Source: Emcibacter sp. SYSU 3D8
GTDB taxonomy: Bacteria > Pseudomonadota > Alphaproteobacteria > SMXS01
Assembly: GCF_039655875.1 (NCBI RefSeq)
Contig: NZ_JBBYXK010000001.1
Span: forward strand, 806,001 to 870,000
DNA: 64,000 nucleotides
Direction of reading: 5' to 3'
A program made the position numbers and the translations under genes. Shown here in pieces: positions 30,198 through 64,000 of this stretch; the first letter of the stretch is position 1, and every line of letters begins with the position of its first letter. Under the pieces are notes generated by a model, which was not told the origin of the DNA, ran no database searches, and saw only the letters and a program-made list of their open reading frames with translations.

Positions 30198-30887
30198 TTA
30201 CGTGATGTCTCCCCGATTCTCCGTCTGGCGGAGGCGATGTATGCGCGTTGTGAGGTCGATAGGTGTGTGGAACACCGACCGTTTGGGATTAGAGCCTGCG
30301 CCAGGCGACCGCCCATATTCCACCGGCCACCCCAGCGGGGCAACGGTGACACCCCCTGCCGCCTTTGGCCAGCAAAGCGATGCGGCGCGGCCGTCGTCCC
30401 GTTCCGCGGACGTTTTCGGGCGCAGCGCGTGGATCATGATGTATTGTCGCACCGACCCCGCCGCACGGACGCCCCGGTCGCGATTTGAGGTCTCGGCACG
30501 GCCGAGTAGAATTTACCGGGTGTCATTCAGGGGAAAATTGTGGAGCCAGACGGGAACTCCACCAATTTCGCAAACCCTAAGATTTCTGCGAGTTGCGGGC
30601 CGTCGAAACGGGCCTCGAAGGGCCATTGTGTAACGATCTGTGTAACGATGGCAAGGTCTGATAGCCCCGTAGCCACTGGCCAACAGTCAGGCACGCCCCG
30701 ACACAGTCGCCCCAACCCCACCATCTCAAGCCCGCGAACAGATACACTGCTGCGCCCATATCGAGGTCGATGACGTGGAGCGCCAAAGTTCCTGACCGGC
30801 TGGCGCAAACCTGTAACGGGCTTCAGGTCGCTCTCTCGCGCGACGAAGGAAAACGATCACAAGCACTGAAGTAAGTTTTTCGACGCA
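30198..30887. other. 690-base gene-free stretch at the left edge of the metal region
   Basis: No frame here has convincing protein character, and no RNA gene is seen. Two structures stand out. GTGGAG at 30540-30545 with CTCCAC at 30557-30562 form a dyad ending in CTCCACCA, which resembles a tRNA-type 3' end. Two tandem copies of TGTGTAACGAT lie at about 30628-30650. Base composition drops compared with the flanking genes. It may mark an insertion boundary. Confidence 0.4.
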
Positions 30888-51184: not shown

Positions 51185-53848
51185 TCAGCCCTCGACCCTG
51201 CACTCTGATAAATGAATCATCGGTGCACCAATGGTCATGTACCGCCCCTGGTGGCAGGTCAGAATGATGATCTGCACCTTCTTTGCCGCCCTGCGCAGTG
51301 CCAGCTCCATACCCCGAAAACGGCCGTCATCGCTGTTAACCAGCGGATCGTCAAGGATCAGTGCTACCGGCTGTCCTTTCTCGAGTAACAGCTCGGCGAA
51401 CGCCAGCCGCGCGAGCACTGCAAGCTGCTCCCGAGTGCCGAGGCTGAGCTGCTCGAAGCTTTCCTCGTTGTCGTTCCGCCTGATGCCTCGGATGTCAAAG
51501 CTCTCCTCGTCGATGGAGATGTCGCTTCCAGGAAAGACGAGAGAGAGATAGGGCATCATTCTGCTGATGATGGGCTGAAGGAACGCCCGTTTGCTGGCCA
51601 CTTCCGCGGCGCTCATCGTGTCGTGGAGCAGCCGGTAGGCCCTCGCGTCGCGCTCCAGCCGTGCGACCTCCGCAGCTTGTACCTCGATCAGGCCTTCGAG
51701 CTCTTCACGTTCCTCGCCAAGCCCCTGCTGCCCGGCCTCACCGAGCGCAGCTTCCAGCTTGAGGATCTCCCGGTCGGTATCGCTGATGATCCGCCGCGTC
51801 TGCTCGACGGCATCCCGGGCGCGTTCGAGCTCTCCTTCGATGGCGATGCGGTTGATCCCCGATAGCTCCTGCTCCAGTTCGCGGAGACGCCGCTCACTGT
51901 TGGCGCGCTCCACCTCCGCCACATCGGTCTGCCGATCGAGATCGCCATCGCTCAAGATCTCGCGCTTCGCGATCAGCTGGTCTTCAAGCGTCGCGCGCTT
52001 CGACCTTTCGCTCGCCAAGTCATGTTTCAGCTGGTTCAACTCGTCCCACAGCCCCTGCCATTCCTTCATGGCACCGGCATGCGCCAGTTCCGCTGCGGCG
52101 AACGCCTTCTCGGCGCGCCCAAGATTCTCCTCAGCTGCCGTCAGGTGGGCTCGACGCGCATCCACGGCTCCCGTCTCTTTACCAGCATGGCCGGGCAACT
52201 GGCCAATCTGTTCCCGCAGCGAGGCCGCTTCCCGCCGTACGTCCGCCAGCGAACGAGGGGCCCGCTCGATCTGTTCCTTCAGTATCCTCACCCGGTTCGC
52301 CAGGTCGCTCCGCTGATCGTGAGAGGCCTGCGCGTCGCCCAGTGATTCCACGCCGTGCGCCGTGAACTCCTCGTCCAGCGCTGACTGGGCTTTGATGAAT
52401 ACATCTCTGCGGGTCGTCAGCTCGCCGGCTCCCGGCGCCACCGTGACGTCGCCGAAACCCTCGAAGGCAAGCGTCACTCGTTCGCTGACGGTAATCGACT
52501 CCTCACTTACCATACTGCCGGCGAGCTTCACCGACTTGCACCCATCCGGGGCGAAGCTCAACTGAACCGACACAGCCTCCAGCGCCGCCCGCGCGATCGT
52601 AACGGCGTCGGACAGGCGCTGAAGCTCCTTGAGCACCTTTGCGTCGATCGAATGACCTTTCAGTTCGAATTCGAACTCCAAGATCTTCCGCTCGCTCGCG
52701 TCGGCCTCGGCGATGAGGGCCTCGAGTTCCTGCAGACGCTCCGACGCTACGGCCGAATCCAGCGACTCGCGGGCAGATCTCAACACCTCGCGTAGCTCGT
52801 TCCTCTCACTGCGCAGACGCTCGCGATCAGTCTCCCGCTGATGGAGGGTGTCCGCCAGGCGGGCGACATCCCCACCGAGCGTCCGTTCGTCGTCTTCGCG
52901 CGACGCCAGCCCCAGCCCGATCTGCTCGATCTGGCGCGCCAGCCTGGCGCGCTGCTCCATCTCGCTGCGTACCCGTTCCTCCTCGCGCTGCGCTGTCTTG
53001 AAGTGATTGTCGACCTCCTTGAGGCTCTGCTCGAGCGCCCCGAGTTGTGCCTGCTGAGCACTCGCCTGCGTCAGCGCAGCCTCCGCCATGGCAAGCACGC
53101 CGCCTTCCTCAATATCGCGAATCGTGCGCCGCGATGTTCCCAGGCGGTCAACCTTGTCTTCGTGCTCCTTGAGATTGGCACAGACGGAATCGTGCCGCGC
53201 GCAAAGGTCGTCCAGCTGGCTCGCGGGAGCCTTGAGCGCCGCCTTCTTCTGGCCCGTCGGCGTGAAGTACCGCTCCAGTTGGTTCGATACGGCATCGAGC
53301 AGCCGGCGGCCTCGCTCCCCGCCCAGCACATGACCAACCTCGCCTTCGATCGCCGAGGATATGGCGTCCTTGCTATCGCGGTTCGGGTCGAGCGTCGTGA
53401 ATGCGCGGCCCTGCTCAATCCAAAGCAGCCCCGCAAGACCCCTGTTCTCGTTCGACGATTCACCCCGGCCGCGCGGTGTGTATTTCAGGAGCTCCTGCAG
53501 CTGCTCGTCCGCGGCGTCGTTCTGCCAAGGTCCGCCACGAGTGCATTTCAGAAGTGCAGACCCTTGCTGGTTCGCGAACACCTTGCGAAGTTGATAGGTC
53601 TCGTCATCAAGGGAAAAATCCACCTCGAGTTCCGGATTCACCTGGGCACCGTAAGGCGTCATCTGGTCGCGCCCCTGGCCCGTCAGCTTGGCCCGGTCGA
53701 AGAGCGAAGTCTGAACCGCTTTGAGCAGAGTCGACTTGCCTTCTTCGTTGTCGCCAACGATGACCGTCAGGCCATCGCCGATGCTGCCGACCTCGACCTT
53801 GTCGGTGAATTTACGGAAATTCTTAAGCGCAATGCGATGAATGAACAT
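51185..53848 (-). CDS. SMC/Rad50-like ATPase (YhaN/SbcC-like)
   Basis: 887 residues. Walker A GDNEEGKST near residue 33; ABC signature LSLGTREQLAVLARLAF and Walker B ALILDDPLVNSDDGR near 800-850, with the arms forming long coiled coils between. In place of a Rad50 zinc hook a beta-rich insert (SVQLSFAPDGCKSVKL, ERVTLAFEGFGDVTVAPG) lies around 420-480; no CxxC hook is present. It belongs to the AAA_27/COG4717-like group that pairs with Mre11-like phosphoesterases. Its partner ends three bases upstream, so they should form one complex that binds and cuts or unloads DNA ends. Confidence 0.9.
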   Translation of the reverse strand: MFIHRIALKNFRKFTDKVEVGSIGDGLTVIVGDNEEGKSTLLKAVQTSLFDRAKLTGQGRDQMTPYGAQVNPELEVDFSLDDETYQLRKVFANQQGSALLKCTRGGPWQNDAADEQLQELLKYTPRGRGESSNENRGLAGLLWIEQGRAFTTLDPNRDSKDAISSAIEGEVGHVLGGERGRRLLDAVSNQLERYFTPTGQKKAALKAPASQLDDLCARHDSVCANLKEHEDKVDRLGTSRRTIRDIEEGGVLAMAEAALTQASAQQAQLGALEQSLKEVDNHFKTAQREEERVRSEMEQRARLARQIEQIGLGLASREDDERTLGGDVARLADTLHQRETDRERLRSERNELREVLRSARESLDSAVASERLQELEALIAEADASERKILEFEFELKGHSIDAKVLKELQRLSDAVTIARAALEAVSVQLSFAPDGCKSVKLAGSMVSEESITVSERVTLAFEGFGDVTVAPGAGELTTRRDVFIKAQSALDEEFTAHGVESLGDAQASHDQRSDLANRVRILKEQIERAPRSLADVRREAASLREQIGQLPGHAGKETGAVDARRAHLTAAEENLGRAEKAFAAAELAHAGAMKEWQGLWDELNQLKHDLASERSKRATLEDQLIAKREILSDGDLDRQTDVAEVERANSERRLRELEQELSGINRIAIEGELERARDAVEQTRRIISDTDREILKLEAALGEAGQQGLGEEREELEGLIEVQAAEVARLERDARAYRLLHDTMSAAEVASKRAFLQPIISRMMPYLSLVFPGSDISIDEESFDIRGIRRNDNEESFEQLSLGTREQLAVLARLAFAELLLEKGQPVALILDDPLVNSDDGRFRGMELALRRAAKKVQIIILTCHQGRYMTIGAPMIHLSECRVEG

Positions 53849-53851
53849 AGA

Positions 53852-54976
53852 TCAATTTCCCAGCCGAACGTGTTCCTGATAGAGACGCAAAAGCGCGTCA
53901 CGCGCTGTGGATGCCTGCTCATGGCCCGGCGATGCAGCAATCCCGCGAAGGTGCTCGATCGCCTCCCGTACGAAGCCCGACCGGTCAATCAGATCGATGT
54001 CATCCTCGTTCGGCACCGCTGTCAGACCATCCTGATCGAGCCGCAGATGGTGGAAGCGTCCCTCCCAGTCCGCGCACATCTCGTCGAGGTGCCGGCGGCC
54101 AGCGAAGTCAATCAAGCCCTCCAGGCGCAGCCACACCAGGTGATCGGCATGATCGCCCTCCAGGGAGCCTAGAAGGCGGCCCACAGCTTCCAGATCGGCC
54201 GGATCGTTCAGCGTCGCATCCTGCTGGCTCCAGCGATAGCGGCCTACGCGCCGCCGCTCTACCACGGGGGGCGCACCGGCTCCCTGCACGTCGACGAGCA
54301 GCACGTTCCCAGGATCGGATGACGTGAACCGGTCCGCTTCCGGCGTACCGGCATACCAGCAGTGGTCGTTGATCTTTAGTGTTCCATGCCAATCACCGAG
54401 TCCCAGGTAATCCAGCCTTGCGCGTGTCGGCCGATCTGGCGCAATCGGGTTTGGCGCCTCGGATTGGCTCGGGAGCCATTCCGGCACGCTGCCATGGGCG
54501 AGACCAATACGCGGAACTCCGGCCGGCGTAACGGCGCCATCAAACCATTCGGTAAGGTCGCCGACCTCATGTCGACGTTGGAGCACCGCAGGCAGCAGCG
54601 CAATTCGGCCATCGGCGACCATCAACGGCTCTGGCGTCAGCGCGAGCTTCACATTGGGCGGAGCGCCCATGCCACTCAGCCTGCTCCAAGCTGAAACAGC
54701 GAGTGCGGCATCGTGGTTGCCAGGAATGAATACCCAGTCCCCCGAAAACCCCGACAGCGCGTTAACAAGTTGCCTGATGGTCCGGTCGCTGACTGTATTC
54801 GCGTCGAAGACATCGCCAGCGACCAGTACGGCGTCAACCTCTTCCGTCCGCGCGAGAGCGGCGATGGCTTTTACGGTGTCGATACGTTGCGACCGGAGCG
54901 CCGCGCCGGCATCGCCGGGAATGTTGGCGAAATGCTTGCCAATCTGCCAATCCGCCGTGTGGATAAATCTGACCAT
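53852..54976 (-). CDS. Mre11/SbcD-like metallophosphoesterase
   Basis: 374 residues. Motifs: FIHTADWQIGK (motif I, with Gln where SbcD has His), VAGDVFDANT, IPGNHDAA, LAHGSVP and LGLGDWHGTLK. These supply the two-metal nuclease site of Mre11 relatives. The C-terminal 150 residues probably contact the coiled-coil ATPase. Located between the DUF4258-like gene and the ATPase gene on one strand. Such pairs process DNA ends in repair or defence. Confidence 0.9.
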   Translation of the reverse strand: MVRFIHTADWQIGKHFANIPGDAGAALRSQRIDTVKAIAALARTEEVDAVLVAGDVFDANTVSDRTIRQLVNALSGFSGDWVFIPGNHDAALAVSAWSRLSGMGAPPNVKLALTPEPLMVADGRIALLPAVLQRRHEVGDLTEWFDGAVTPAGVPRIGLAHGSVPEWLPSQSEAPNPIAPDRPTRARLDYLGLGDWHGTLKINDHCWYAGTPEADRFTSSDPGNVLLVDVQGAGAPPVVERRRVGRYRWSQQDATLNDPADLEAVGRLLGSLEGDHADHLVWLRLEGLIDFAGRRHLDEMCADWEGRFHHLRLDQDGLTAVPNEDDIDLIDRSGFVREAIEHLRGIAASPGHEQASTARDALLRLYQEHVRLGN

Positions 54977-55017
54977 TGATGCCCCCTAAAATTCTTTTCG
55001 TAACTTTATCTGCGGTC

Positions 55018-55419
55018 TCAGTGGATGACCATCTCGTAACGATCTTCATCAACAACTGGATGAAGTGAGCGAGCCTGTTCCAGCCAAGCGGTAACGACCG
55101 CGCCTTGTTCCGAGACGATGACCACCAGCTTTCTTACCTGCCGCCGCACCCTGTCGCAGGTTCTGGTGTGGCAGGCACGCTTGATGGCCTTCCGTGAACA
55201 AGCGAGCTTGAGCTTGCCGTCACCGAGCGACACGAAGAGATCTGCAAAGGTGAGCACCGCGTCGACGGCATCAGGCAGGATGTGTCGCTGGTCGATGCGC
55301 TCATGCAGATGTCCTGTCGCGCTCCAGTGGCCGCAAATGCTCCGATGGTCTGCAGTAAAGGGCTTCCATGTCGCTGGCTTCACTCGGCCGCTTCCAAAGT
55401 TCTCGATCTGCCTCATCAT
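55018..55419 (-). CDS. DUF4258-like small protein
   Basis: 133 residues, basic. GHLHERIDQRHI matches the H-x-x-R-x-x-R-x-I start of DUF4258, and KLVVIVSEQGAVVTAWLEQ is a typical C-terminal strand pair. DUF4258 is a RelE/BrnT-like fold found in small toxins and in larger enzymes. The N-terminal 30 residues are not family-like. AGGAGG stands five bases before the ATG. It leads an operon with the phosphoesterase and ATPase, and faces the WYL regulator across a dyad. Toxin activity is possible but not shown. Confidence 0.7.
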   Translation of the reverse strand: MMRQIENFGSGRVKPATWKPFTADHRSICGHWSATGHLHERIDQRHILPDAVDAVLTFADLFVSLGDGKLKLACSRKAIKRACHTRTCDRVRRQVRKLVVIVSEQGAVVTAWLEQARSLHPVVDEDRYEMVIH

Positions 55420-55437
55420 GTCTGCCTCCTGATGCGT

Positions 55438-55465
55438 AACAGCTTGTGCATAATGTTTAGCTGTT
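55438..55465. promoter_or_regulatory. Inverted repeat with embedded -10 box, candidate WYL operator
   Basis: AACAGCT (55438-55444) and AGCTGTT (55459-55465) form a perfect dyad with centres 21 bases apart. CATAAT (55449-55454) lies inside, a candidate -10 element for the WYL gene. It sits between the two divergent genes. BrxR/CapW-type WYL proteins bind such dyads and repress themselves and the defence genes, so this is a candidate operator. Confidence 0.65.
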
Positions 55466-55515
55466 GAACCATGCAGGGCTCAGAGGGAGCATTTACCCGG
55501 GGGGGGGTGTGGGCG

Positions 55516-56505
55516 ATGCGATCAAACAGAGAACAAGTTTCAGCGAAGAGATTTGGTCAGGTATCAAGGCTGCAATTCATCGACCAGGAACTTTACTGGA
55601 GCGGCGAAATCACCCGCCGCCGCATCGCTGAGACCTTCGGTGTTTCCCATGACACGGCCAAGGCAGATCTTAGACGCTATCGGCTCGACCTCGCCCCAGA
55701 CCTGACCCCTGACGATCAAGATAACGTTTATCGCGTACCACTCGACTACGAGCCCCGACTTGGCAAGTCGCCCGATCCCGAGGGCTATTTGGGCGCACTT
55801 ACTGCGCGGCAGTCCGTCGAAATCCCTGTCGATGTCGTTCCCGACATTGATCGCAGACCGATCGATCCAACCGTCCTTCAATCGGTCATCCGATGCATCA
55901 AGGCTTCGCAGGAACTGCTCGTGTACTACCGCTCCGCGCGGTCACGGGAGGCAAGGCCGGTGTGGATTTATCCACATGCGCTGACGCATGACGGCTTCCG
56001 CTGGGCGGCACGCTGTTACGTACATCGCGACGAAGAACACGGCTACTGGGGCGACATCGTGCTCGACCGGATCGAAGACGTAACCATCGACACGCGGCCG
56101 GCGTCGAAGGAACTTATGGGCAAGGATGAATCCTGGAACGCCATCGTCGAGATCGAAATCATTCCCAATCCCGGTCTCGATGCGCACGAGTGCGGCCTCA
56201 TCGAGGAGCAATACGGCATGATTGGCGGTCGAAAGATCGTCCGAGTTCGCCAGTGCCAGCTGGTCTACTTCCTGAAGCGCTATCAGCTTGAGGAACCAAT
56301 TACGCTCAAGGCGCCCCACCAGGCGCCAATCGTGCTACGCGATCGCGATATGGCGAACGAATTGGTTCCTGTCGCGATGCAAGTACCGCTCTCAGACCAT
56401 CCTGGCGGCACCGCTAGCTACATGCGCGCCCTCAGGAAGCGGCTTCCGGATCTAACTGAGCAAGAGATTCTGGAAGAGGCGCTTCGCATTTTCCTTGATC
56501 AATGA
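55516..56505 (+). CDS. WYL-domain transcriptional regulator (BrxR/CapW-like)
   Basis: About 329 residues. An N-terminal winged helix (FIDQELYWSGEITRRRIAETFGVSHDTAKADLRRY) is followed by a WYL domain near 130-200 with YYRSARSREARPVWIYPHALTHDGFRWAARCYVHRD, and a WCX-like C-terminal part. WYL regulators of phage-defence operons sense nucleic acids or nucleotides. The ATG at 55516 is chosen because the candidate promoter lies at 55449-55454; an in-frame ATG at 55471 would put the dyad on the ribosome site. A run of nine G (55499-55507) lies just upstream of the start. Confidence 0.88.
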   Translation: MRSNREQVSAKRFGQVSRLQFIDQELYWSGEITRRRIAETFGVSHDTAKADLRRYRLDLAPDLTPDDQDNVYRVPLDYEPRLGKSPDPEGYLGALTARQSVEIPVDVVPDIDRRPIDPTVLQSVIRCIKASQELLVYYRSARSREARPVWIYPHALTHDGFRWAARCYVHRDEEHGYWGDIVLDRIEDVTIDTRPASKELMGKDESWNAIVEIEIIPNPGLDAHECGLIEEQYGMIGGRKIVRVRQCQLVYFLKRYQLEEPITLKAPHQAPIVLRDRDMANELVPVAMQVPLSDHPGGTASYMRALRKRLPDLTEQEILEEALRIFLDQ

Positions 56506-56512
56506 ATTTGCC

Positions 56513-58711
56513 TTAGCTGTCGTCGTCCTCTCCCGCGCCGTCATCATCTCTAATTGTTGATGCGAAGATGCTGGGCGCGGCGTTGGCCGGTGCAAAGAGC
56601 ACCGGCCACCAGAACGGCGCGTCTCTCCAGCCATCTTCGAGGCGCCCTTCTTGCTTGAACAACGCGAGTACTGGTAACCCTCCGATTGCTGTCTTCACTT
56701 TGGCACGATCCTGGTAGGTATGCGGTGCATCTGAGTACCGCCCCTCAGTACGCTGGCGGCTTAGCGTTCTGCCCGTCTCGGCGAAGATCCAGCAGTATCC
56801 GCGGCTCTCGGGCGGCGAGGCGATTCGAGAGAAATACTCGATAGCTGCCCTACAAGCCTCCCAGTCGAAGCCATACCCGCTTTCGAAGTCAAAGCACTGT
56901 TCAACAATGTTGATAATTTCGATCGCTACTTCGGTCGTGACCTTCTCTGGCTTACCGGACGAGATCGCACCGGAGGTGATGAGCTTTTCGACCTTCCCAA
57001 CTAACCTGGCCATCGCGGTTCGTGCGCCTGTCTGAAAGCCGAACGGCAGCAGTGCACCACCAGGGCGAAGCGCAACGATGTCCGAAGCCAGGATCTTGCC
57101 GGGAGCGCAGGGAATGATCCGGTTGCCACTATCCCTGACAACAAAGGCAACGCCTCGATCATGCGCTCCGGTTTCGAAGGCGTAACGAAGGGCTGCATCG
57201 AATTCGTGTATCGATCTCAAGGCATTGAAGTTGTGCGCCGTCGTATAGAAGCGAGTAACCGCTAGGTCACTCGGCGGCCTCGTGCCGTACATGCGAGCGT
57301 GCTGCAGAACGGTGTCCTGCTGCATGCGCTTCGGGGATCTCCCATAGTAGAAGGCGATGAGGCCCGGCACGGTGATGCCACGATCAAGGATCTGGCCACC
57401 AATAAAGACATTGTACGGCGTTCTCAGCCGCAACTCGGCATTCTCATCGAGAAGTGCTTCAACGTCGTTGTCGGAGTTGACCTTCTCCGTGACCACGGCG
57501 CCCTTAAGGAAAGCCCTCCGCACCTCATCGACGATATCCTGCCGATCCGGCATGCGAAATCCGCCCGCGCTGACTGACCTATCAAGGTCATCAAGTGCGG
57601 CATCAATGAGAAGCTCAAAGTTCTGATCCCGCTCCTTGATAGCCGTATTAAGCGCATCAAGGATCTCTCCAGCGACCATATGTTGCCACGCGTGTGCACG
57701 TCGAGCAGTCTCGACATGGATGATCATCGAATACCGGCGGGGCCGCTCATTGGCCGCGCGTTGTTGCAGGCGGCGGATTGCCGCCGCAGTCACGAACGTG
57801 ACCAAGCCATGTCGGAGACCCTTGATCTTATCGGCAGTGAGAGCTTGTGCGGTTTTGACCCTGCGACGATCCTCCTTCTTCAGCGCCGAGAGTTCGTCAT
57901 CGGTCACTTCATTCCAGAGGTAAAACTGTGGATCCCGTTCATCGTATTCGCCGAAGTATTGCTCCCCGCCGACGTACATTGAATGTATTGGCACCAATTT
58001 GGTGAATGCCGGCCGCTTCGGCTCGAATGTGAAGTTGGCTCCGGGAGCCGCATCATACTCGTCGGGCTGGAGGTATAGAGAGTAAGGGGTCGCGGTCACC
58101 TGCAGGACCGCTGGATTCGTCAACTCCCGGCGCAGTTCGTCGATCTGATCGGCAATTCTACCTTGTTCCAGTCCAGTCTTATCCTTGCTTCTGGTGAACC
58201 GAATGGAAGCAAAGTCCGCCTCGTCATCGATAATCAGCACGCGCTTTGCGGCCAAGGAGGGATGCGTCTCTCCAAAAAGCTTGATCAGACGCCGAAGATT
58301 GTTGGTCTCCTTCTTGGCTACGATCACGAGCTTCTGATCTTCGATTTCCCACGCCGTGAGTTCCGGTATCGACATGATGTCGTACACCGCGAGCTCTTCG
58401 TTGTCCCGAAACGATGCGTACTCCTTCGAGATGCGATTAACTGTCTGCTTCGCGAGTGTTCTTGTGCCCTTGGTCAGCACAATGGCGACATCGAACCCTT
58501 CGTCAAACGCCGCCGCGATGATCCCAAGGAATGACCGTGTCTTTCCCGATTGTATCTTCCCGAGCAGCATGCCAGGCCGCCGCGAGTCCGTCGGTTGCGA
58601 GATCAGTTCCTGAACTGTCTCAAGCACACACATCTCGGCCTCGCGGCTTTCGGGAATATTAGCGTTGGCGCGGATCGCCTTGAGCCGTTCGTAAAATCCT
58701 CGACTATGCAT
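56513..58711 (-). CDS. Z1-domain ATPase
   Basis: 732 residues. Walker A LLGKIQSGKTRS near 47, Walker B VLIIDDEADFAS near 160, SAT-like TATPYSLYLQP, and the Z1 core FIGGQILDRGITVPGL and DTVLQHARMYGTR near 440-475. Z1 proteins are helicase-like ATPases found in restriction and defence loci, including Mza systems. No nuclease domain is fused. The gene ends seven bases from the convergent WYL gene. A 12-bp palindrome is 21 bases upstream of the start. Confidence 0.92.
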   Translation of the reverse strand: MHSRGFYERLKAIRANANIPESREAEMCVLETVQELISQPTDSRRPGMLLGKIQSGKTRSFLGIIAAAFDEGFDVAIVLTKGTRTLAKQTVNRISKEYASFRDNEELAVYDIMSIPELTAWEIEDQKLVIVAKKETNNLRRLIKLFGETHPSLAAKRVLIIDDEADFASIRFTRSKDKTGLEQGRIADQIDELRRELTNPAVLQVTATPYSLYLQPDEYDAAPGANFTFEPKRPAFTKLVPIHSMYVGGEQYFGEYDERDPQFYLWNEVTDDELSALKKEDRRRVKTAQALTADKIKGLRHGLVTFVTAAAIRRLQQRAANERPRRYSMIIHVETARRAHAWQHMVAGEILDALNTAIKERDQNFELLIDAALDDLDRSVSAGGFRMPDRQDIVDEVRRAFLKGAVVTEKVNSDNDVEALLDENAELRLRTPYNVFIGGQILDRGITVPGLIAFYYGRSPKRMQQDTVLQHARMYGTRPPSDLAVTRFYTTAHNFNALRSIHEFDAALRYAFETGAHDRGVAFVVRDSGNRIIPCAPGKILASDIVALRPGGALLPFGFQTGARTAMARLVGKVEKLITSGAISSGKPEKVTTEVAIEIINIVEQCFDFESGYGFDWEACRAAIEYFSRIASPPESRGYCWIFAETGRTLSRQRTEGRYSDAPHTYQDRAKVKTAIGGLPVLALFKQEGRLEDGWRDAPFWWPVLFAPANAAPSIFASTIRDDDGAGEDDDS

Positions 58712-58731
58712 TTCAGCCTCTTCATTAAATA

Positions 58732-58792
58732 TGGGTTAACCCACCCCAAAACACCTTCATCACTTCATCGCTTAGGTGGAGAAACACCTTCA
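58732..58792. promoter_or_regulatory. Palindrome and direct repeats upstream of the Z1 gene
   Basis: TGGGTTAACCCA at 58732-58743 is a perfect 12-bp palindrome beginning 21 bases before the Z1 start. AAACACCTTCA occurs at 58749-58759 and again at 58782-58792, 33 bases apart (three helical turns). These lie in the 283-base gap between the UvrD-type gene and the Z1 gene; the rest of this gap holds no convincing frame. A regulator site is inferred. Confidence 0.5.
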
Positions 58793-58994
58793 CGGCGATC
58801 CCTCTCAACGCCGGCTTGTCGAACGGGTGCGAGGTGACCCTGTCCATGTTTCCTTATCATTCCTTGAAACGCTTCCCCACAAACGCGGCCATGGCCAATC
58901 ATGCTACCCTCGGTTGCGACGAAGCAACCTCTTCATGCGCTTCTGCATGTCGATGGCAGCGAGCCACCACTCCACATAAGACAGTGCCGGTCCG

Positions 58995-61073
58995 CTAGAC
59001 GTTTAGGGCGATATCCCCCAGAAACTCAGACCCAGGTTCCACCCCCGTGACCAACAGATGATCCCGCGCCCTGGTGCAGGCGACATAAAGCAGGTGGCGC
59101 TCGGTCGCATAGACCTCTTCCAGGTCGGATTCATCGGCGACTGTCTCGATCCGCTCCTGCAACGGCAGCACTTCGTCATCGCAGGCCATCACAGCGACGG
59201 CTCGAAACTCCAGCCCCTTCGCCAGGTGCATGATGCCGATCGAGACGGAGCCCGGCGTTGTCTCCACGGTGTCGCTCAGCTCGACAAATGCCGCGCCACA
59301 GGCCTTTACGGCTGTGCGAGCGCGCTTCATCTGACGCTCGCTCCGCACGAACACGCCGATCTCCTGCGGCGCGACACCCTCCGCCAGCCGGTCCGTGATC
59401 CAGGTGCCGACGATGCCGGTCTCATCAGCCTCGTCCTCGGCGATTTGGATGTCCGGTGGCGGGCCGTTGAAGACCGAGACGGTGCCATCTCGGCTGTCGG
59501 CGATGCCATCCACGTCGGCTACAGAACGCGGCAGCAACCCATCCAGAGCGCTACGGATCTGGTGTGATGTGCGGTAGCAGACGCGCAGGGTGAAGGAGCG
59601 GCCGCGCACGTCCACGCCCAGCGCTTTCCACGAGAAGGGCTGCTGGAAGATGCGCTGGCCCAGGTCGCCAGCGAAGAACAGTCCGTCTGGCCGTCCACCA
59701 GTGAGCGCCGAGAGAAAACGAAGTTCAGCCACCGAGACGTCCTGCGCCTCGTCGACCACGGCGTGATCGAATGGCACCTTGCCACCAGCGAAATGGGCCG
59801 TCAGCCGACCAAACATCTCCGGCCAGGTAGTCAGCTTGCGCGCGGCCAGTCCAGTACGTACCTGCTCGAAAACGCCCCAAAGGGCTTCCCGCTGCTTCGG
59901 CCCCAGCCGCGTCTTGCGGCCCAGTCGCGCGACGTTGCGGTAGTCGTCCCAGCTATTGAGCTGCCACGCATCAGCGACGTCGGTCCACTCGGCGAAGAGG
60001 AACTGATCCGAGAACCGCTGTTCGCCTAGCGCATCTGCCGCCTGCCGAAGCAATGATCGGATCTGCGCCGGAGAGGCCATGTTCGGCTGCCCGAACAGAC
60101 GACCGTATAGTTCATAGCCGATGCCGGTCATGGTCCGCACCGCGATGCGCTCGGTCGTCGCGCCCTCACCTGCCAGATGCGCCAGCTTGATCTTCAGCGC
60201 GTTCGCCAGCGACTTGGAGAACGTCGCAAGCAGAACCCGCGCCGCCGGATCACGCCCCGTCAGGAACGCCGCCCGGTGCAGCGCCACCACCGTCTTTCCG
60301 GTACCGGCCGAGCCAGCGACGCGGGCCGGGCCGGAATAGCCGCGCTCGATCAACTCGCGCTGCGCGGGATGCAGGAACACCGCCCACTTCTCCCAGGGGA
60401 ACTCCAGCGCCCGCTCTAGCTCCTCGACATTGGTGAGCACGCGGAAGCGACGCTGTGCATCTGGATGCAGGAACGGATCGACTTCGTCCGGCGCCATGAC
60501 GGGAACATTCAGCGTAGCGCCAGTCGCCAGATCAAGCAGAGCCTCCGCGGCTTCCTGTGGCAAGTGGTCGGTGATCGCGAGAAGAGTATCCTCCGTGGCG
60601 GCGCGCACGTCCGCCAGCCAGTCAGGCGGCACGCCATAGCCCAGCAAGGCCGCGTCATCGAGGTTGGCGAAAAGAGGCGCTGGCGGCGCCATCCTTTGCG
60701 CTTGGCTTTCGCCGTCCGAAGTATAGGAAACTGCTTCCTCGACCCGTTCACGGATTTCCACCAGCTGCGCCGCGCCTGTGGTTGGGTGGCGCTCGATCTT
60801 GCGCCTCTCAGCCCAGGTATACGCGTCGTCGTGATGGTCGACATAGCACAGCAGCAGGCTGCGCTCTGTCCGGTGCACGATCATGCGGATGTCGGCATTC
60901 ACCCGCACCGACCAGAAATTCGCATCGCGAGCACGGTCTAGCTTATGGAACTGCATGCCCGGCGCTGCGGCATCGACTTGGAGGTCGAAAGCCGTCGTCT
61001 TGACCGCCTTCTGCTCCTGCCCTGTAAGGCGCGCGAGGCTGGCCGTAAACGTGTCAGCGATACGAAATTCCAT
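58995..61073 (-). CDS. UvrD-type helicase with N-terminal RelE-like domain
   Basis: 692 residues. The first about 105 residues look like a RelE/ParE-type fold, with FWSVRVNADIRMIVHRTERSLLL and VDHHDDAYTWAERRK. The rest is a superfamily 1 helicase: GSAGTGKTVVAL near 255, HAVVDEAQDVS near 437 and YVACTRARDHLLVTG near 665. A similar fusion is seen in other bacteria, but its role is unknown. It starts two bases after the SNF2 gene and probably shares its message. The RelE part could bind RNA or ribosomes, or only mediate contacts. Confidence 0.92.
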   Translation of the reverse strand: MEFRIADTFTASLARLTGQEQKAVKTTAFDLQVDAAAPGMQFHKLDRARDANFWSVRVNADIRMIVHRTERSLLLCYVDHHDDAYTWAERRKIERHPTTGAAQLVEIRERVEEAVSYTSDGESQAQRMAPPAPLFANLDDAALLGYGVPPDWLADVRAATEDTLLAITDHLPQEAAEALLDLATGATLNVPVMAPDEVDPFLHPDAQRRFRVLTNVEELERALEFPWEKWAVFLHPAQRELIERGYSGPARVAGSAGTGKTVVALHRAAFLTGRDPAARVLLATFSKSLANALKIKLAHLAGEGATTERIAVRTMTGIGYELYGRLFGQPNMASPAQIRSLLRQAADALGEQRFSDQFLFAEWTDVADAWQLNSWDDYRNVARLGRKTRLGPKQREALWGVFEQVRTGLAARKLTTWPEMFGRLTAHFAGGKVPFDHAVVDEAQDVSVAELRFLSALTGGRPDGLFFAGDLGQRIFQQPFSWKALGVDVRGRSFTLRVCYRTSHQIRSALDGLLPRSVADVDGIADSRDGTVSVFNGPPPDIQIAEDEADETGIVGTWITDRLAEGVAPQEIGVFVRSERQMKRARTAVKACGAAFVELSDTVETTPGSVSIGIMHLAKGLEFRAVAVMACDDEVLPLQERIETVADESDLEEVYATERHLLYVACTRARDHLLVTGVEPGSEFLGDIALNV

Positions 61074-61075
61074 TG

Positions 61076-63934
61076 CTATGCTGGAGGCGCAGCCGAAGGA
61101 GGAACGGTTCCGGCATCTGCAGCAGCGAGCGCAACTAGTCCATTAGGGTGATTGAAGCGGGTGCTTTTTTCCGCAAGCCGTCGCCCCGCAGCATCGAAGA
61201 GACGCGCGATACTGGCTTGCCTCTTCTCAAGCGAATGGTTCGGGATCGATCCCGGCTGCAGCCCGGCCAGCCAATCAGCTACGAAGGGCGGGTTCGCTAC
61301 CACAGAACCTTCATCCGCTCCAAACAGTGTCACAAACTCCACCGTTGTTGGGTCCCCCTGGTCGTTCTGCCAGCGCAGGTTGAAAGCTGCAAGTACCCCT
61401 GCTTGGCCGCGCGGGTTTACGATAGGCGCATAAAGGCCGTCGAAGCGCTGCTCCTTGGCCTCGGCAACCAGATGCTGAAAAAATGCCGTTTCGAAATCGA
61501 GGAGAACCAGATCCCTCCTGTCTTGGGCCAAGCGACGATCGGTGGTAACACGCACAACAGTGCGTTGACTGAATTCACCGAACTGCCCCTTCAGTTCCTC
61601 GGGCAATCTGAGTTCATGAGCCCTGCCGCCAAATGGTGATGACAGCACCTCAATATCCAGCAGCGGCAACATGCCACGAATAAACATATCGACATGCCTC
61701 ATCGTGAGGCCCAGCGTACCGCTCAACCCGTTCGGGTCGAACCCGGCGACATGTGTAAATATTTCTTCCTGCATGTTCCGAGCACGTCGTGCGCGATCGA
61801 GTGCCTCGGCAACCTGCGCTTCAGTCTTTTCAGGCTGCATAGCGTTGGCTCCCCTCAACACGGATGACAGGTCCAGGTTCTCAAGGAGTTCGCCGAGGAT
61901 CTCGGCATAAAGCCGTTCGTGGAAGTCGGCGTTTACCGGCGCCATATCCTGCACAATCTGCTCGACCCGCCGCATCATCAGGTCGATGGCGCTGTTGTCG
62001 AACGTGTCCTGGGCATGGAGGTTGAACACGACAACGGTTTCTTGCTGCCCATACCGGTAGAGGCGCCCAATCCGTTGCACCAGCCGCGCGGGATTCCAGG
62101 GCATGTCGTAATTGACCATGACGTGGCACGACCGATGAAGATTAAGCCCCTCTCCGCCCGCTTCCGTCGATATCATGAAGGTCGCCGGCCCATCGAACGC
62201 CTCAATCGCGCGGCGCTTATCATCCAGCTTCATTGATCCGTTGATGAGCGCGACTTCGCCCAGTTCTGGGAAACGGCGCTTTAATGCGCCCTCAAGGTAA
62301 GTCTGGGTGGCACGATACTCCGTGAACACCAAAAGTTTCTTTCCCTCCCTCACGAGCGGCTCGACGACCTGATCAAGAAACAGGCGAAGTTTCTCATCAT
62401 TCCGGCGCACATCAACTGCAAGCTCCAGCAGCGCATGAATCATTTCTGCTTCAAAATCGAAAAATTCGCTGCTCGTCGTTCGCCTTATGGTGGTTGCAAG
62501 ATCGTCCTGCTCGTCGCCCCCATCTTCCAAATCCTCCAAGGAGAACTGGTGATCGTAGTCTGAAATCGGTTCAGCATCCGCAGCTCCAGACAACCTGTCG
62601 AGGCGAAGATTCAGCGCACGTTCGATTGCTGCAATACTCGATGACGCCAGCTTCCGATACGTCGTCATAACAAAGCCAATGGCTCGGCCGATAGCGCCAC
62701 CACTCTCGCCCGCCTTGTAACCACGACGCAGATAATCCTGGAGCTTCTGCTGAAAGGCGCGTGTTTCAGGTGAAGGCTCTACGGGCACCCGATGGATCTG
62801 CTGTCCCTTGAAGATGAACTTGCCGTCGGCATCGGTTACTTCGCTCTTGCGATTTCGCAGGATCATCTCCCCTACGACTTCCGGATTGGCTTCCATGGTC
62901 TGAATCTGGGGCTTCAGGTCCGGGCGAACCAACTCCAGCAAAGCGATAAACCGATCCGCGTAGCCCTGATGCGGCGTGCCACTCAGCAGAAGGAACGCGT
63001 CCGACATCTGCCGCAGCATTTCCGCCAGGCGATAACGCTCGCTGACTTCGCCATCACCGTGCCGTGTCAGCTTGTGGCCTTCATCGAATACGATGACGTC
63101 CCAGCCTCCCGTTTGTTTGAACAGCTGCATGTGCTGCTCGCGCTTGGCCAGATCGATCGAGACAATAACGTGATCCTCGCCCTTCCAGTGCTCGGGGCGA
63201 TTGATCACGAAGTCCAGTCCGTAAATTTTGTAATCCTGGTCGAACTTGTACTTGAGTTCGTCCTGCCACTGGCGCACCAGACCCGCGGGCGCAACGATCA
63301 GCACCCGCCGCGCCTGCCCTTTCCGCTTGAGCGCGGCGAGCAGAAGGCCGACTTCAATGGTCTTGCCGAGACCCACGTCGTCAGCGATCAGCCAGTTATA
63401 GTTTCCAGAACTGAGGATGCGGTGAACAAGTTGTATCTGATGCGGCAATGGATCCACGTCGAGCCTGTCCAGGGACCCAGTGAGGTGGTTCCAGTTCTCG
63501 AGCGCGTGGGCGAGAAGCCTTAATCGAAACCGCTCCGCATGGTCAGGCGTGCCGGTTTCCGCGCGCACATAGCGCATGCGCACGTCCTTGACCCTGCGGA
63601 GATTTTCGTACGGCAACCAAACCGATCGCCCATCGTCGTGCAGCTGGATCAGTATCTGCTCGCGTCCGCCGAGCACACGTCGGCTGACAACCTCTCCAAG
63701 GCCCAGCGGGCTGCGCGTAGTCGACAACGGAATGTCCTGTACCGTCCAGCCCTGTTGAATGCCTGACTGCAACAGAGACAGATCAATCCATTCCTGGTTG
63801 TTGCCTGGCCACGAAACTCTGACCTGCGTAGAGCTTCCTGAGCCCCTACTGGCAAGAACCCGCCCAAGTATTTTGGGAAGCTCGATACGCCGCACCCAGC
63901 AGCCTTCGACGGGCACTAGAACATCCGCGACCAT
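61076..63934 (-). CDS. SNF2-family helicase, DrmD-like
   Basis: About 952 residues. Walker A IADDVGLGKTIEV near 185, DEGH in IVFDEGHKLTRH near 281, LLLSGTPHQG, then the C-terminal lobe with FTEYRATQTYLEG, STEAGGEGLNLH near 590 and PARLVQRIGRLYRYGQQ. The PHQG spelling after motif III and the DEGH box are shared with RapA and DrmD of DISARM. I chose the ATG of MVADVLVPVEG, which has GGGAG upstream; a GTG four codons earlier is the alternative. Its start overlaps the end of another coding frame. It likely translocates on double-stranded DNA in a defence complex. Confidence 0.9.
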   Translation of the reverse strand: MVADVLVPVEGCWVRRIELPKILGRVLASRGSGSSTQVRVSWPGNNQEWIDLSLLQSGIQQGWTVQDIPLSTTRSPLGLGEVVSRRVLGGREQILIQLHDDGRSVWLPYENLRRVKDVRMRYVRAETGTPDHAERFRLRLLAHALENWNHLTGSLDRLDVDPLPHQIQLVHRILSSGNYNWLIADDVGLGKTIEVGLLLAALKRKGQARRVLIVAPAGLVRQWQDELKYKFDQDYKIYGLDFVINRPEHWKGEDHVIVSIDLAKREQHMQLFKQTGGWDVIVFDEGHKLTRHGDGEVSERYRLAEMLRQMSDAFLLLSGTPHQGYADRFIALLELVRPDLKPQIQTMEANPEVVGEMILRNRKSEVTDADGKFIFKGQQIHRVPVEPSPETRAFQQKLQDYLRRGYKAGESGGAIGRAIGFVMTTYRKLASSSIAAIERALNLRLDRLSGAADAEPISDYDHQFSLEDLEDGGDEQDDLATTIRRTTSSEFFDFEAEMIHALLELAVDVRRNDEKLRLFLDQVVEPLVREGKKLLVFTEYRATQTYLEGALKRRFPELGEVALINGSMKLDDKRRAIEAFDGPATFMISTEAGGEGLNLHRSCHVMVNYDMPWNPARLVQRIGRLYRYGQQETVVVFNLHAQDTFDNSAIDLMMRRVEQIVQDMAPVNADFHERLYAEILGELLENLDLSSVLRGANAMQPEKTEAQVAEALDRARRARNMQEEIFTHVAGFDPNGLSGTLGLTMRHVDMFIRGMLPLLDIEVLSSPFGGRAHELRLPEELKGQFGEFSQRTVVRVTTDRRLAQDRRDLVLLDFETAFFQHLVAEAKEQRFDGLYAPIVNPRGQAGVLAAFNLRWQNDQGDPTTVEFVTLFGADEGSVVANPPFVADWLAGLQPGSIPNHSLEKRQASIARLFDAAGRRLAEKSTRFNHPNGLVALAAADAGTVPPSAAPPA

Positions 63935-64000
63935 CTGCTCTCCCACTCCCGGTTGTCTTGGTGTTCCAGCAGCAATCCTGCGTAGAGCTTTTCCGCCTCA
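63916..64000 (-). CDS. C-terminal end of an unknown gene (5' part outside window)
   Basis: Minus-strand frame open to the window edge, ending EKLYAGLLLEHQDNREWES-RWSRMF then TAG. It overlaps the SNF2 start by 19 bases, in the style of coupled genes. Only 27 residues are seen, so no family can be named; it would be the next gene upstream in the helicase operon. Confidence 0.55.
   Translation of the reverse strand, partial: EAEKLYAGLLLEHQDNREWESRWSRMF

What the first reader, a model, noticed from the sequence alone, without database searches (positions are those of the whole stretch)
51185..64000. Candidate undescribed defence module combining SNF2, RelE-UvrD, Z1, WYL, DUF4258, Mre11-like and Rad50-like genes
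Seen: a DrmD-like SNF2 helicase, a RelE-fused UvrD helicase and a Z1 ATPase run in one direction. A WYL regulator lies between them and a DUF4258, phosphoesterase, SMC-ATPase operon that it faces across a dyad. Known: each family recurs in phage-defence loci (DrmD in DISARM, Z1 in Mza, WYL in BREX/CBASS control, Mre11/Rad50-like pairs in several systems). Inferred: the set acts together. I recall no named system with this exact set and order, and the module continues past the window.
Basis: partly seen in the sequence, partly recalled or inferred. Interest (0 to 1): 0.85.

Follow-up and report, generated by a model that had tools for sequence, protein, structure and literature searches.

The report
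Restriction-modification operon with plug-in helicase cassette
The genes are the tail of a longer bacterial DNA restriction-modification operon that in many relatives carries the same odd toxin-helicase fusion and here has an extra helicase pair in its middle, with a separate helicase and DNA-repair genes parked next to it on a mobile island.

Summary
The genes are real (two labels weak), but the window cut the operon. Past 64000 it continues, same strand, into a type III-like methyltransferase, a DUF4268-like protein and an endonuclease passing NCBI's BPTD_3080 cut-off (1363.6 vs 800 bits). In relatives endonuclease, methyltransferase and RelE-UvrD recur together: methyltransferase upstream of RelE-UvrD in 18 of 20 viral-contig loci, all three in 7 of 8 plasmid loci fetched, RelE-UvrD beside the core in 10 of 22 genome loci. 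Genes in between vary (GmrSD, HNH, subtilase, DUF3883). The SNF2 helicase forms a two-gene unit with an acidic partner (6 of 7 loci, one by an indirect link), inside this core here and in one other genome. Z1 was beside the core in none of the loci examined, Mre11/Rad50 only in a few Sphingobium-type plasmids with a distant core. So the seven-gene module is not conserved. DISARM and MZA cut-offs are not met; ARMADA II holds the nearest known RelE-UvrD. All appears to sit on a tRNA-Ala island with copper resistance. Best reading: BPTD_3080 restriction-modification with embedded accessory genes, next to a separate WYL and Mre11/Rad50 unit. Mechanism is inferred.

The parts
63916..64000 (-). 3' end of P0001: acidic, low-complexity protein with a conserved, probably helical C-terminal domain, about 450 aa; the whole gene is about 65268-63916 in coordinates continued past the window
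   Evidence: ORF L002:3916-5517; relatives beside SNF2 in L044, L005, L052, L021 (profile), L096 only through L021; no Pfam or PADLOC family at 0.001
61076..63946 (-). SNF2/RapA-like helicase (P0002), 956 aa; GLGKT and DEGH motifs present
   Evidence: 67% to L044, 65% to L005, 57% to L052
58995..61073 (-). RelE-like N-terminus fused to UvrD helicase (P0003), 692 aa; recurrent third gene of the core
56513..58711 (-). Z1-domain ATPase (P0004), 732 aa, 283 bases from RelE-UvrD; not part of the recurrent core
   Evidence: MzaC cut-off not met
55471..56505 (+). WYL regulator (P0005) of the BrxR/CapW kind; real start may be later
   Evidence: PDB matches CapW 8.1e-27 and BrxR 1.1e-26; relatives (34%) first in the core operon in L076, L077, L091 and before BREX-like genes in L012
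55438..55465 (.). 7-base inverted repeat in the divergent intergenic region, possible WYL operator
   Evidence: not tested against chance
55018..55419 (-). small protein of unknown family (P0006), 133 aa; DUF4258 label not confirmed
   Evidence: no relative in the loci held then
53852..54976 (-). Mre11/SbcD-like metallophosphoesterase (P0007) with unusual metal-site motifs (DWQ, GDWH)
51185..53848 (-). Rad50/SbcC-like ATPase (P0008), 887 aa
30540..30555 (+). 16-base direct repeat of the tRNA-Ala 3' end: likely left end of the island (right copy at 84510-84525, coordinates continued past the window)
   Evidence: tRNA-Ala; integrase L003:2625-4412

Best explanation
A BPTD_3080-type (type III-like) restriction-modification operon whose core is endonuclease - methyltransferase - RelE-UvrD helicase, with accessory genes in the gaps: a DUF4268/PDC-S11 protein with a PD-(D/E)xK-like motif between endonuclease and methyltransferase, and an acidic adaptor plus SNF2 helicase pair between methyltransferase and RelE-UvrD. 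Z1 and a WYL-flanked Mre11/Rad50 unit are neighbours on the same tRNA-Ala island, not core parts. Likely working: the methyltransferase marks host DNA (probably adenine N6, by family); the endonuclease, an SF2 motor with a C-terminal PD-(D/E)xK motif, attacks unmarked DNA (inferred by family); the RelE-UvrD motor unwinds or processes that DNA and its RelE part may cut RNA when engaged (inferred from ARMADA, where the ArmD gene and its Walker A are needed); the SNF2 pair moves along DNA and clears or remodels bound protein, its acidic partner serving as tether or DNA mimic (speculative). Mre11/Rad50 may process ends (speculative).
For: Six same-strand genes with overlaps or gaps of a few bases. 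BPTD_3080 equivalog cut-off passed; PADLOC type III methyltransferase 1352 bits; best solved relatives of P0009 are type III Mod proteins, EcoP15I among them. Recurrence: at least part of the methyltransferase within 1.8 kb upstream of RelE-UvrD in 18 of 20 viral-contig loci (the two misses have under 900 bases upstream), endonuclease too in 13 of 20; all three genes in 7 of 8 plasmid loci fetched, out of 11 rows with at least 50% identity among the 30 shown; methyltransferase in 20 of 22 and RelE-UvrD in 10 of 22 genome loci found with the endonuclease. Gap genes vary: GmrSD_N, NOV_C, DUF2971, AAA plus subtilase, HNH. SNF2 with a P0001-family partner in 6 of 7 loci. Motor and catalytic motifs of the three core proteins present by pattern.
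Against: RelE-UvrD is missing in 12 of 22 genome loci: 5 had room (L032-L035, L043), 5 are cut by contig ends (L036, L038, L046, L050, L051), 2 are a distant clade (L066, L067). In L026, L037 and L039 (Tistrella-type) the methyltransferase precedes the endonuclease and RelE-UvrD is on the other strand. L089 has only part of the methyltransferase and no endonuclease despite room. Qipengyuania has RelE-UvrD without the pair. The SNF2 pair inside the core is seen only twice (window, L044). Mre11/Rad50-type genes do lie beside related cores in a few plasmids. Nothing was measured.
Confidence: 0.75

Rival explanations
1. The seven genes of the first reader, with or without the upstream genes, are one new defence system acting together.
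For: All lie side by side on one island; a relative of the WYL gene heads the core operon in three near-identical viral contigs (L076, L077, L091); a BrxR-like WYL gene also flanks the SNF2 pair in L096; four Sphingobium-type plasmid records have Rad50 next to a distant methyltransferase relative and S. aliaeris has a different Rad50/exonuclease set upstream of the core.
Against: Z1, Mre11 and Rad50: 0 of 22 genome loci and 0 of 20 viral-contig loci of the core; 0 of 12 other Rad50 loci hold core genes. Z1 and Mre11/Rad50 are separate units by strand and spacing.
Confidence: 0.1
2. It is a variant of ARMADA Type II or DISARM in which the methyltransferase and main helicase were replaced by a restriction-modification pair.
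For: ARMADA II joins an SNF2 helicase, a methyltransferase, a YprA helicase and a RelE-UvrD in one operon (PMC12458937, passages); P0003 is 33% identical over nearly its length to the E. coli protein that I take for ArmD by gene order, and 39% to a Thermus one.
Against: Each large operon protein is assigned elsewhere: ResIII/BPTD_3080, type III-like methyltransferase, SNF2; no dedicated YprA model was run. P0002 matches the E. coli ArmA-type protein at only 27% over 491 residues and lies in a separate supported clade; DrmD cut-off not met. 21 of 22 genome loci and 20 of 20 viral-contig loci show no SNF2 relative.
Confidence: 0.1
3. The acidic partner plus SNF2 pair is an independent two-gene system that merely entered the operon (this can hold together with the best explanation).
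For: It stands without this core in L005 among metabolic genes, in L052, in L021 and, beside type I restriction genes, in L096; L044 lies in a supported clade of cores that excludes the window, so the pair entered twice or was lost often.
Against: Same gap, same strand and tight spacing in both cores; three of seven loci (window, L044, L096) are beside restriction-modification genes.
Confidence: 0.35

Closest known systems
BPTD_3080 family restriction-modification (NCBIfam NF046055)
   Same: P0011 passes the curated cut-off; annotated relatives show endonuclease followed by methyltransferase
   Different: The model covers the endonuclease only; the recurrent RelE-UvrD third gene and the filled gaps were not found described
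ARMADA Type II (PMC12458937)
   Same: RelE-fused UvrD/GajB-like helicase and an SNF2 helicase in one operon with a DNA methyltransferase
   Different: Type III-like methyltransferase and BPTD_3080 endonuclease in place of PglX-like ArmB and YprA-like ArmC; the SNF2 belongs to another branch and has an acidic partner
EcoP15I-like type III restriction-modification
   Same: Methyltransferase matches type III Mod structures; endonuclease has a ResIII motor and a C-terminal PD-(D/E)xK-like motif
   Different: Endonuclease matches PADLOC type III profiles only weakly (1.1e-6); a third recurrent gene
BREX with embedded accessory genes (PMC9122601, PMC12839542)
   Same: Methylation-based core, BrxR-like WYL regulator nearby, accessory nucleases inside the locus; the SNF2 is BrxH-like
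   Different: No other BREX gene in the hit rows shown for the operon
DISARM, MZA, SbcCD, Lamassu
   Same: DrmD-like, MzaC-like, SbcCD-like and LmuB-like single proteins
   Different: Curated cut-offs not met or partner genes not seen

Membership tests
BPTD_3080 restriction endonuclease family | NF046055 equivalog score at or above 800 bits | tested here: met
   1363.6 bits
BPTD_3080 restriction endonuclease family | adjacent DNA methyltransferase (seen in annotated relatives) | tested here: met
   P0009, N6_N4_Mtase, DPPY and DPTCGSGT motifs
Type III restriction-modification | Mod similar to known type III Mod | tested here: met
   PDB: Mod 6k0w 1.7e-15, EcoP15I Mod 4.3e-11; PADLOC MTase_III
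Type III restriction-modification | Res passes type III Res profiles | tested here: inconclusive
   best PADLOC REase_III 1.1e-6; NCBIfam type III model 20.9 bits, cut-off 564
Type III restriction-modification | cleavage needs two unmethylated sites in opposite orientation (recalled) | not testable with these tools
   needs biochemistry
ARMADA Type II | RelE-fused UvrD (ArmD) | tested here: met
   33% identity over residues 5-677 to an E. coli protein taken for ArmD by gene order; N-terminal alignment
ARMADA Type II | YprA-like helicase (ArmC) and PglX-like methyltransferase (ArmB) | tested here: not met
   operon proteins are assigned to ResIII/BPTD_3080, type III-like methyltransferase and SNF2; no dedicated YprA model was run
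DISARM class 1 | DrmD at curated cut-off, with DrmA, DrmB, DrmC | tested here: not met
   DrmD 314.4 bits, cut-off 610; no DrmB or DrmC in the rows shown; the one DrmA hit (3e-65) is the SNF2 gene itself
MZA | MzaC at curated cut-off with its partner genes | tested here: not met
   72.6 bits, cut-off 1500; no other Mza hit in the rows shown
SbcCD | SbcD subfamily cut-off | tested here: not met
   53.4 bits, cut-off 77.65; unusual metal-site motifs
BrxR/CapW WYL regulators | near full-length match to BrxR or CapW | tested here: met
   residues 27-293 to BrxR 1.1e-26, 29-274 to CapW 8.1e-27
BrxR/CapW WYL regulators | represses its locus by binding DNA upstream | not testable with these tools
   short inverted repeat seen, binding not tested

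The most novel reading that the evidence does not exclude
RelE-UvrD is a shared effector plugged into at least two unrelated methylation-based systems (BPTD_3080 restriction-modification and ARMADA II), so these operons are modular: a self-marking core, a common RelE-UvrD responder, and fixed gaps that take interchangeable second-layer weapons, among them an unnamed acidic-adaptor plus SNF2 pair that entered the same gap at least twice.
Probability: 0.45. Interest if true: 0.65.

Novelty: new variant of a known kind. Interest (0 to 1): 0.48.

Why it matters
It turns a seven-gene puzzle into a testable layout: a known restriction-modification core, a recurrent third gene that the searches made here did not find described with it, and positions where accessory genes are swapped. 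It predicts that the same RNase-helicase responder serves two different recognition machines, which gene swaps in laboratory strains can test, and it names a two-gene SNF2 unit whose partner protein has no family.

Tried and rejected
Seven-gene module: rejected on co-occurrence, with the plasmid exceptions told above. DISARM and MZA: cut-offs not met. Lamassu: the LmuB hit (3.5e-14, residues 264-864 of P0008) has no LmuA-type partner, P0007 having no PADLOC hit. DUF4258 label: no support. Viral-contig scans with SNF2 and Rad50 found no relative. tblastn of P0001 in plasmids found nothing, although a profile later found the gene on the Nitrosococcus plasmid. Single-sequence models of P0012 (mean pLDDT 46; residues 191-250 at 70-84 and helical) and P0006 (pLDDT 32) were too poor, and no fold search was run. 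Of eight Z1 loci fetched (L014, L015, L070-L075) none showed the core endonuclease, methyltransferase or RelE-UvrD; a cytosine methyltransferase lies beside Z1 in two (L014, L071). The host organism was not identified. The trees leave the window's own place open; they only show L044 in a supported clade without the window. Limits: L039 is the same replicon as plasmid L026 by length and sequence, and several viral contigs are near-copies of each other, so counts are of loci, not independent events; PADLOC lists for P0002, P0008 and P0009 were capped at 25 rows.
Full report
What is there. The window is contig 1, bases 806001-870000, of a 4.07 Mb genome in 17 contigs. Coordinates beyond 64000 below continue the same contig. 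Upstream of the SNF2 gene, on the same strand, come P0001 (about 65268-63916, 450 aa, no family), P0009 (ORF 68141-65274, likely start 68075; N6_N4 methyltransferase), P0010 (68986-68075; DUF4268 at 24.9 bits, cut-off 27; PADLOC candidate PDC-S11 1.1e-93) and P0011 (72009-68983; ResIII motor). Neighbours overlap or lie within a few bases down to RelE-UvrD, which ends at 58995. Then come a 283-base gap and Z1, a tail-to-tail WYL gene, and a divergent unit of a small gene, Mre11-like and Rad50-like.

What the core is. P0011 scores 1363.6 bits against NCBI's BPTD_3080 restriction endonuclease model, cut-off 800. It has GAGKT, DEAH and a C-terminal PDF...EIK motif; by my patterns the first two are in 40 of 40 homologues and the third in 34 of 40. 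P0009 matches a PADLOC type III methyltransferase model at 1352 bits, and its best solved relatives are type III Mod proteins, EcoP15I among them.

The recurrent third gene. RelE-UvrD (P0003) is a frequent partner of this pair. In 20 viral-contig loci found with P0003, at least part of the methyltransferase lies within 1.8 kb upstream in 18; the other two have only 518 and 864 bases upstream. The endonuclease is held in 13 of 20; of the seven without it, six are cut by a contig end and one (L089) is not. Of 11 plasmid rows with P0003 at 50% identity or more among the 30 shown (79 records matched) I fetched 8; 7 hold all three genes, one (Qipengyuania) holds neither partner. Starting instead from P0011 in 385 genomes of the same class, 22 genomes had a hit at 1e-100, one being the window's own. 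The 22 loci of the other 21 genomes were all fetched: 20 of 22 have the methyltransferase, 10 of 22 RelE-UvrD, 1 of 22 the SNF2 pair, 0 of 22 Z1, Mre11 or Rad50. Of the 12 without RelE-UvrD five had room for it, five are cut by contig ends, two belong to a distant clade. In the Tistrella-type loci (L026, L037, L039) the methyltransferase comes first and RelE-UvrD is on the opposite strand.

The gaps. Between endonuclease and methyltransferase relatives carry GmrSD_N proteins (L045, L048), NOV_C/DUF3883 (L019), DUF2971 (L032) or a UPF0175 plus DUF3368 pair (L028). Between methyltransferase and RelE-UvrD they carry AAA plus subtilase (L040), HNH (L048), small unknowns or nothing. In the window these places hold P0010 and P0001-SNF2. 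P0010 has a D...ENQ motif that could be a PD-(D/E)xK variant; that reading is mine.

The SNF2 pair. SNF2 relatives at 40% or more were found in L044, L005, L052, L021, L022 and L096. A P0001 relative precedes it in L044, L005 and L052 by sequence search, in L021 by profile (3.9e-10), and in L096 only through L021 (5e-9; the profile itself missed it). In Deinococcus L022 no convincing relative was found. Counting the window, 6 of 7. The L021 and L096 partners begin with weak TPR-like matches below cut-off. L005 is among metabolic genes; L096 is followed by type I specificity and restriction genes. In trees of P0003 and P0011, L044 pairs with L084, which lacks SNF2, inside a supported clade that excludes the window, while the window's own place stays open. 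Two insertions into the same gap, or repeated losses, would explain this.

The neighbours. Z1 (P0004) had no hit at 1e-30 in 288 other class genomes. Relatives of 68% (L073), 40% (L074) and 48.5% (a phage record from human faeces, H161) exist. None of eight Z1 loci fetched showed the core endonuclease, methyltransferase or RelE-UvrD; L072 has a weak SNF2-motor match. Mre11/Rad50: Rad50 relatives in 12 of 385 genomes, own included; all 12 other loci (11 genomes) hold both genes and none holds core genes in the fetched stretch. In plasmids the pair lies before BREX-like genes in Sphingobium (L012; my reading of gene names and sizes), before a distant BPTD_3080 pair in S. herbicidovorans (L023) and before DUF4297-HerA in Burkholderia (L013); three more Sphingobium or Rhizorhabdus records show Rad50 and methyltransferase matches side by side by coordinates. 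S. aliaeris (L019) has YhaN, exonuclease and another ATPase just upstream of a core. So such genes travel with several defence systems, which weakens pure chance but is not a fixed module. In P0007 the usual metal-site motifs (recalled) read DWQ, as in 11 of 14 aligned sequences, and GDWH, with that D in 14 of 14. P0005 is of the BrxR/CapW kind, a family reported beside many defence systems (PMC9122601, passages).

The island. A 16-base repeat of the tRNA-Ala 3' end lies at 30540 and 84510, with an integrase at 82625-84412 beside the tRNA; a further 23-base repeat is shared near both ends. Inside are copper-resistance genes and a HipA-like gene.

How it probably works. Shown: gene order, families, motifs, recurrence. 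Inferred from families: self-methylation and restriction of unmarked DNA. Inferred from ARMADA (PMC12458937, passages), where deleting any of four genes abolishes protection, ArmD's Walker A change abolishes it and its Walker B change reduces it: RelE-UvrD is an active responder here too. Speculative: the SNF2 pair as a roadblock-clearing motor with an acidic adaptor, and WYL as repressor of the Mre11/Rad50 unit and perhaps of the operon.

Known or new. Searches for BPTD_3080 (0 papers), RelE/UvrD/ARMADA, type III restriction with UvrD-like helicase, RelE/GajB/SNF2, embedded accessory genes, DUF4268 and Z1 or Mre11/Rad50 combinations showed no description of this operon in what I saw. For most papers that was the listing with the start of the abstract; passages were seen of PMC12458937, PMC12839542 (also section 28 and the first of two parts of section 35), PMC11980606 (no mention of UvrD or helicase in its main text), PMC9122601 and PMC4619093. 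The library lacks most subscription papers. I call it a new variant of a known kind.

Noticed in passing
30540-64000 (island continues to 84525 past the window): Probable integrated element of about 54 kb at tRNA-Ala with copper-resistance genes (CopB, multicopper oxidase, P-type ATPase, Cus-like efflux) besides the defence genes.
   Followed up: partly
L012:9492-17619, L023:9493-17619: Two Sphingobium plasmids carry WYL - large protein (TM0106 RecB-like in L023) - Mre11 - Rad50 next to conjugation genes, followed once by BREX-like genes and once by a distant BPTD_3080 pair: a swap behind a fixed cassette.
   Followed up: no
L019:2110-13039: S. aliaeris plasmid has YhaN, DNA repair exonuclease and another ATPase just upstream of a BPTD_3080 core.
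   Followed up: no
53852-54976: Mre11-like family with DWQ (11 of 14 aligned) and GDxH (14 of 14) in place of the usual metal-binding motifs (usual motifs recalled).
   Followed up: partly
L096:5763-19668: BrxR-like WYL gene divergent from a weakly TPR-like acidic protein plus SNF2 helicase, followed by type I restriction genes.
   Followed up: partly
L027:9787-21757: Qipengyuania plasmid RelE-UvrD lies in a row with a TM0106 RecB-like nuclease and a large DUF4011 protein, another context for this fusion.
   Followed up: no
L040:5873-11219: AAA ATPase plus subtilase genes lie between methyltransferase and RelE-UvrD.
   Followed up: no
L045:5068-6957, L048:4981-6855: GmrSD-type genes embedded between endonuclease and methyltransferase.
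   Followed up: no
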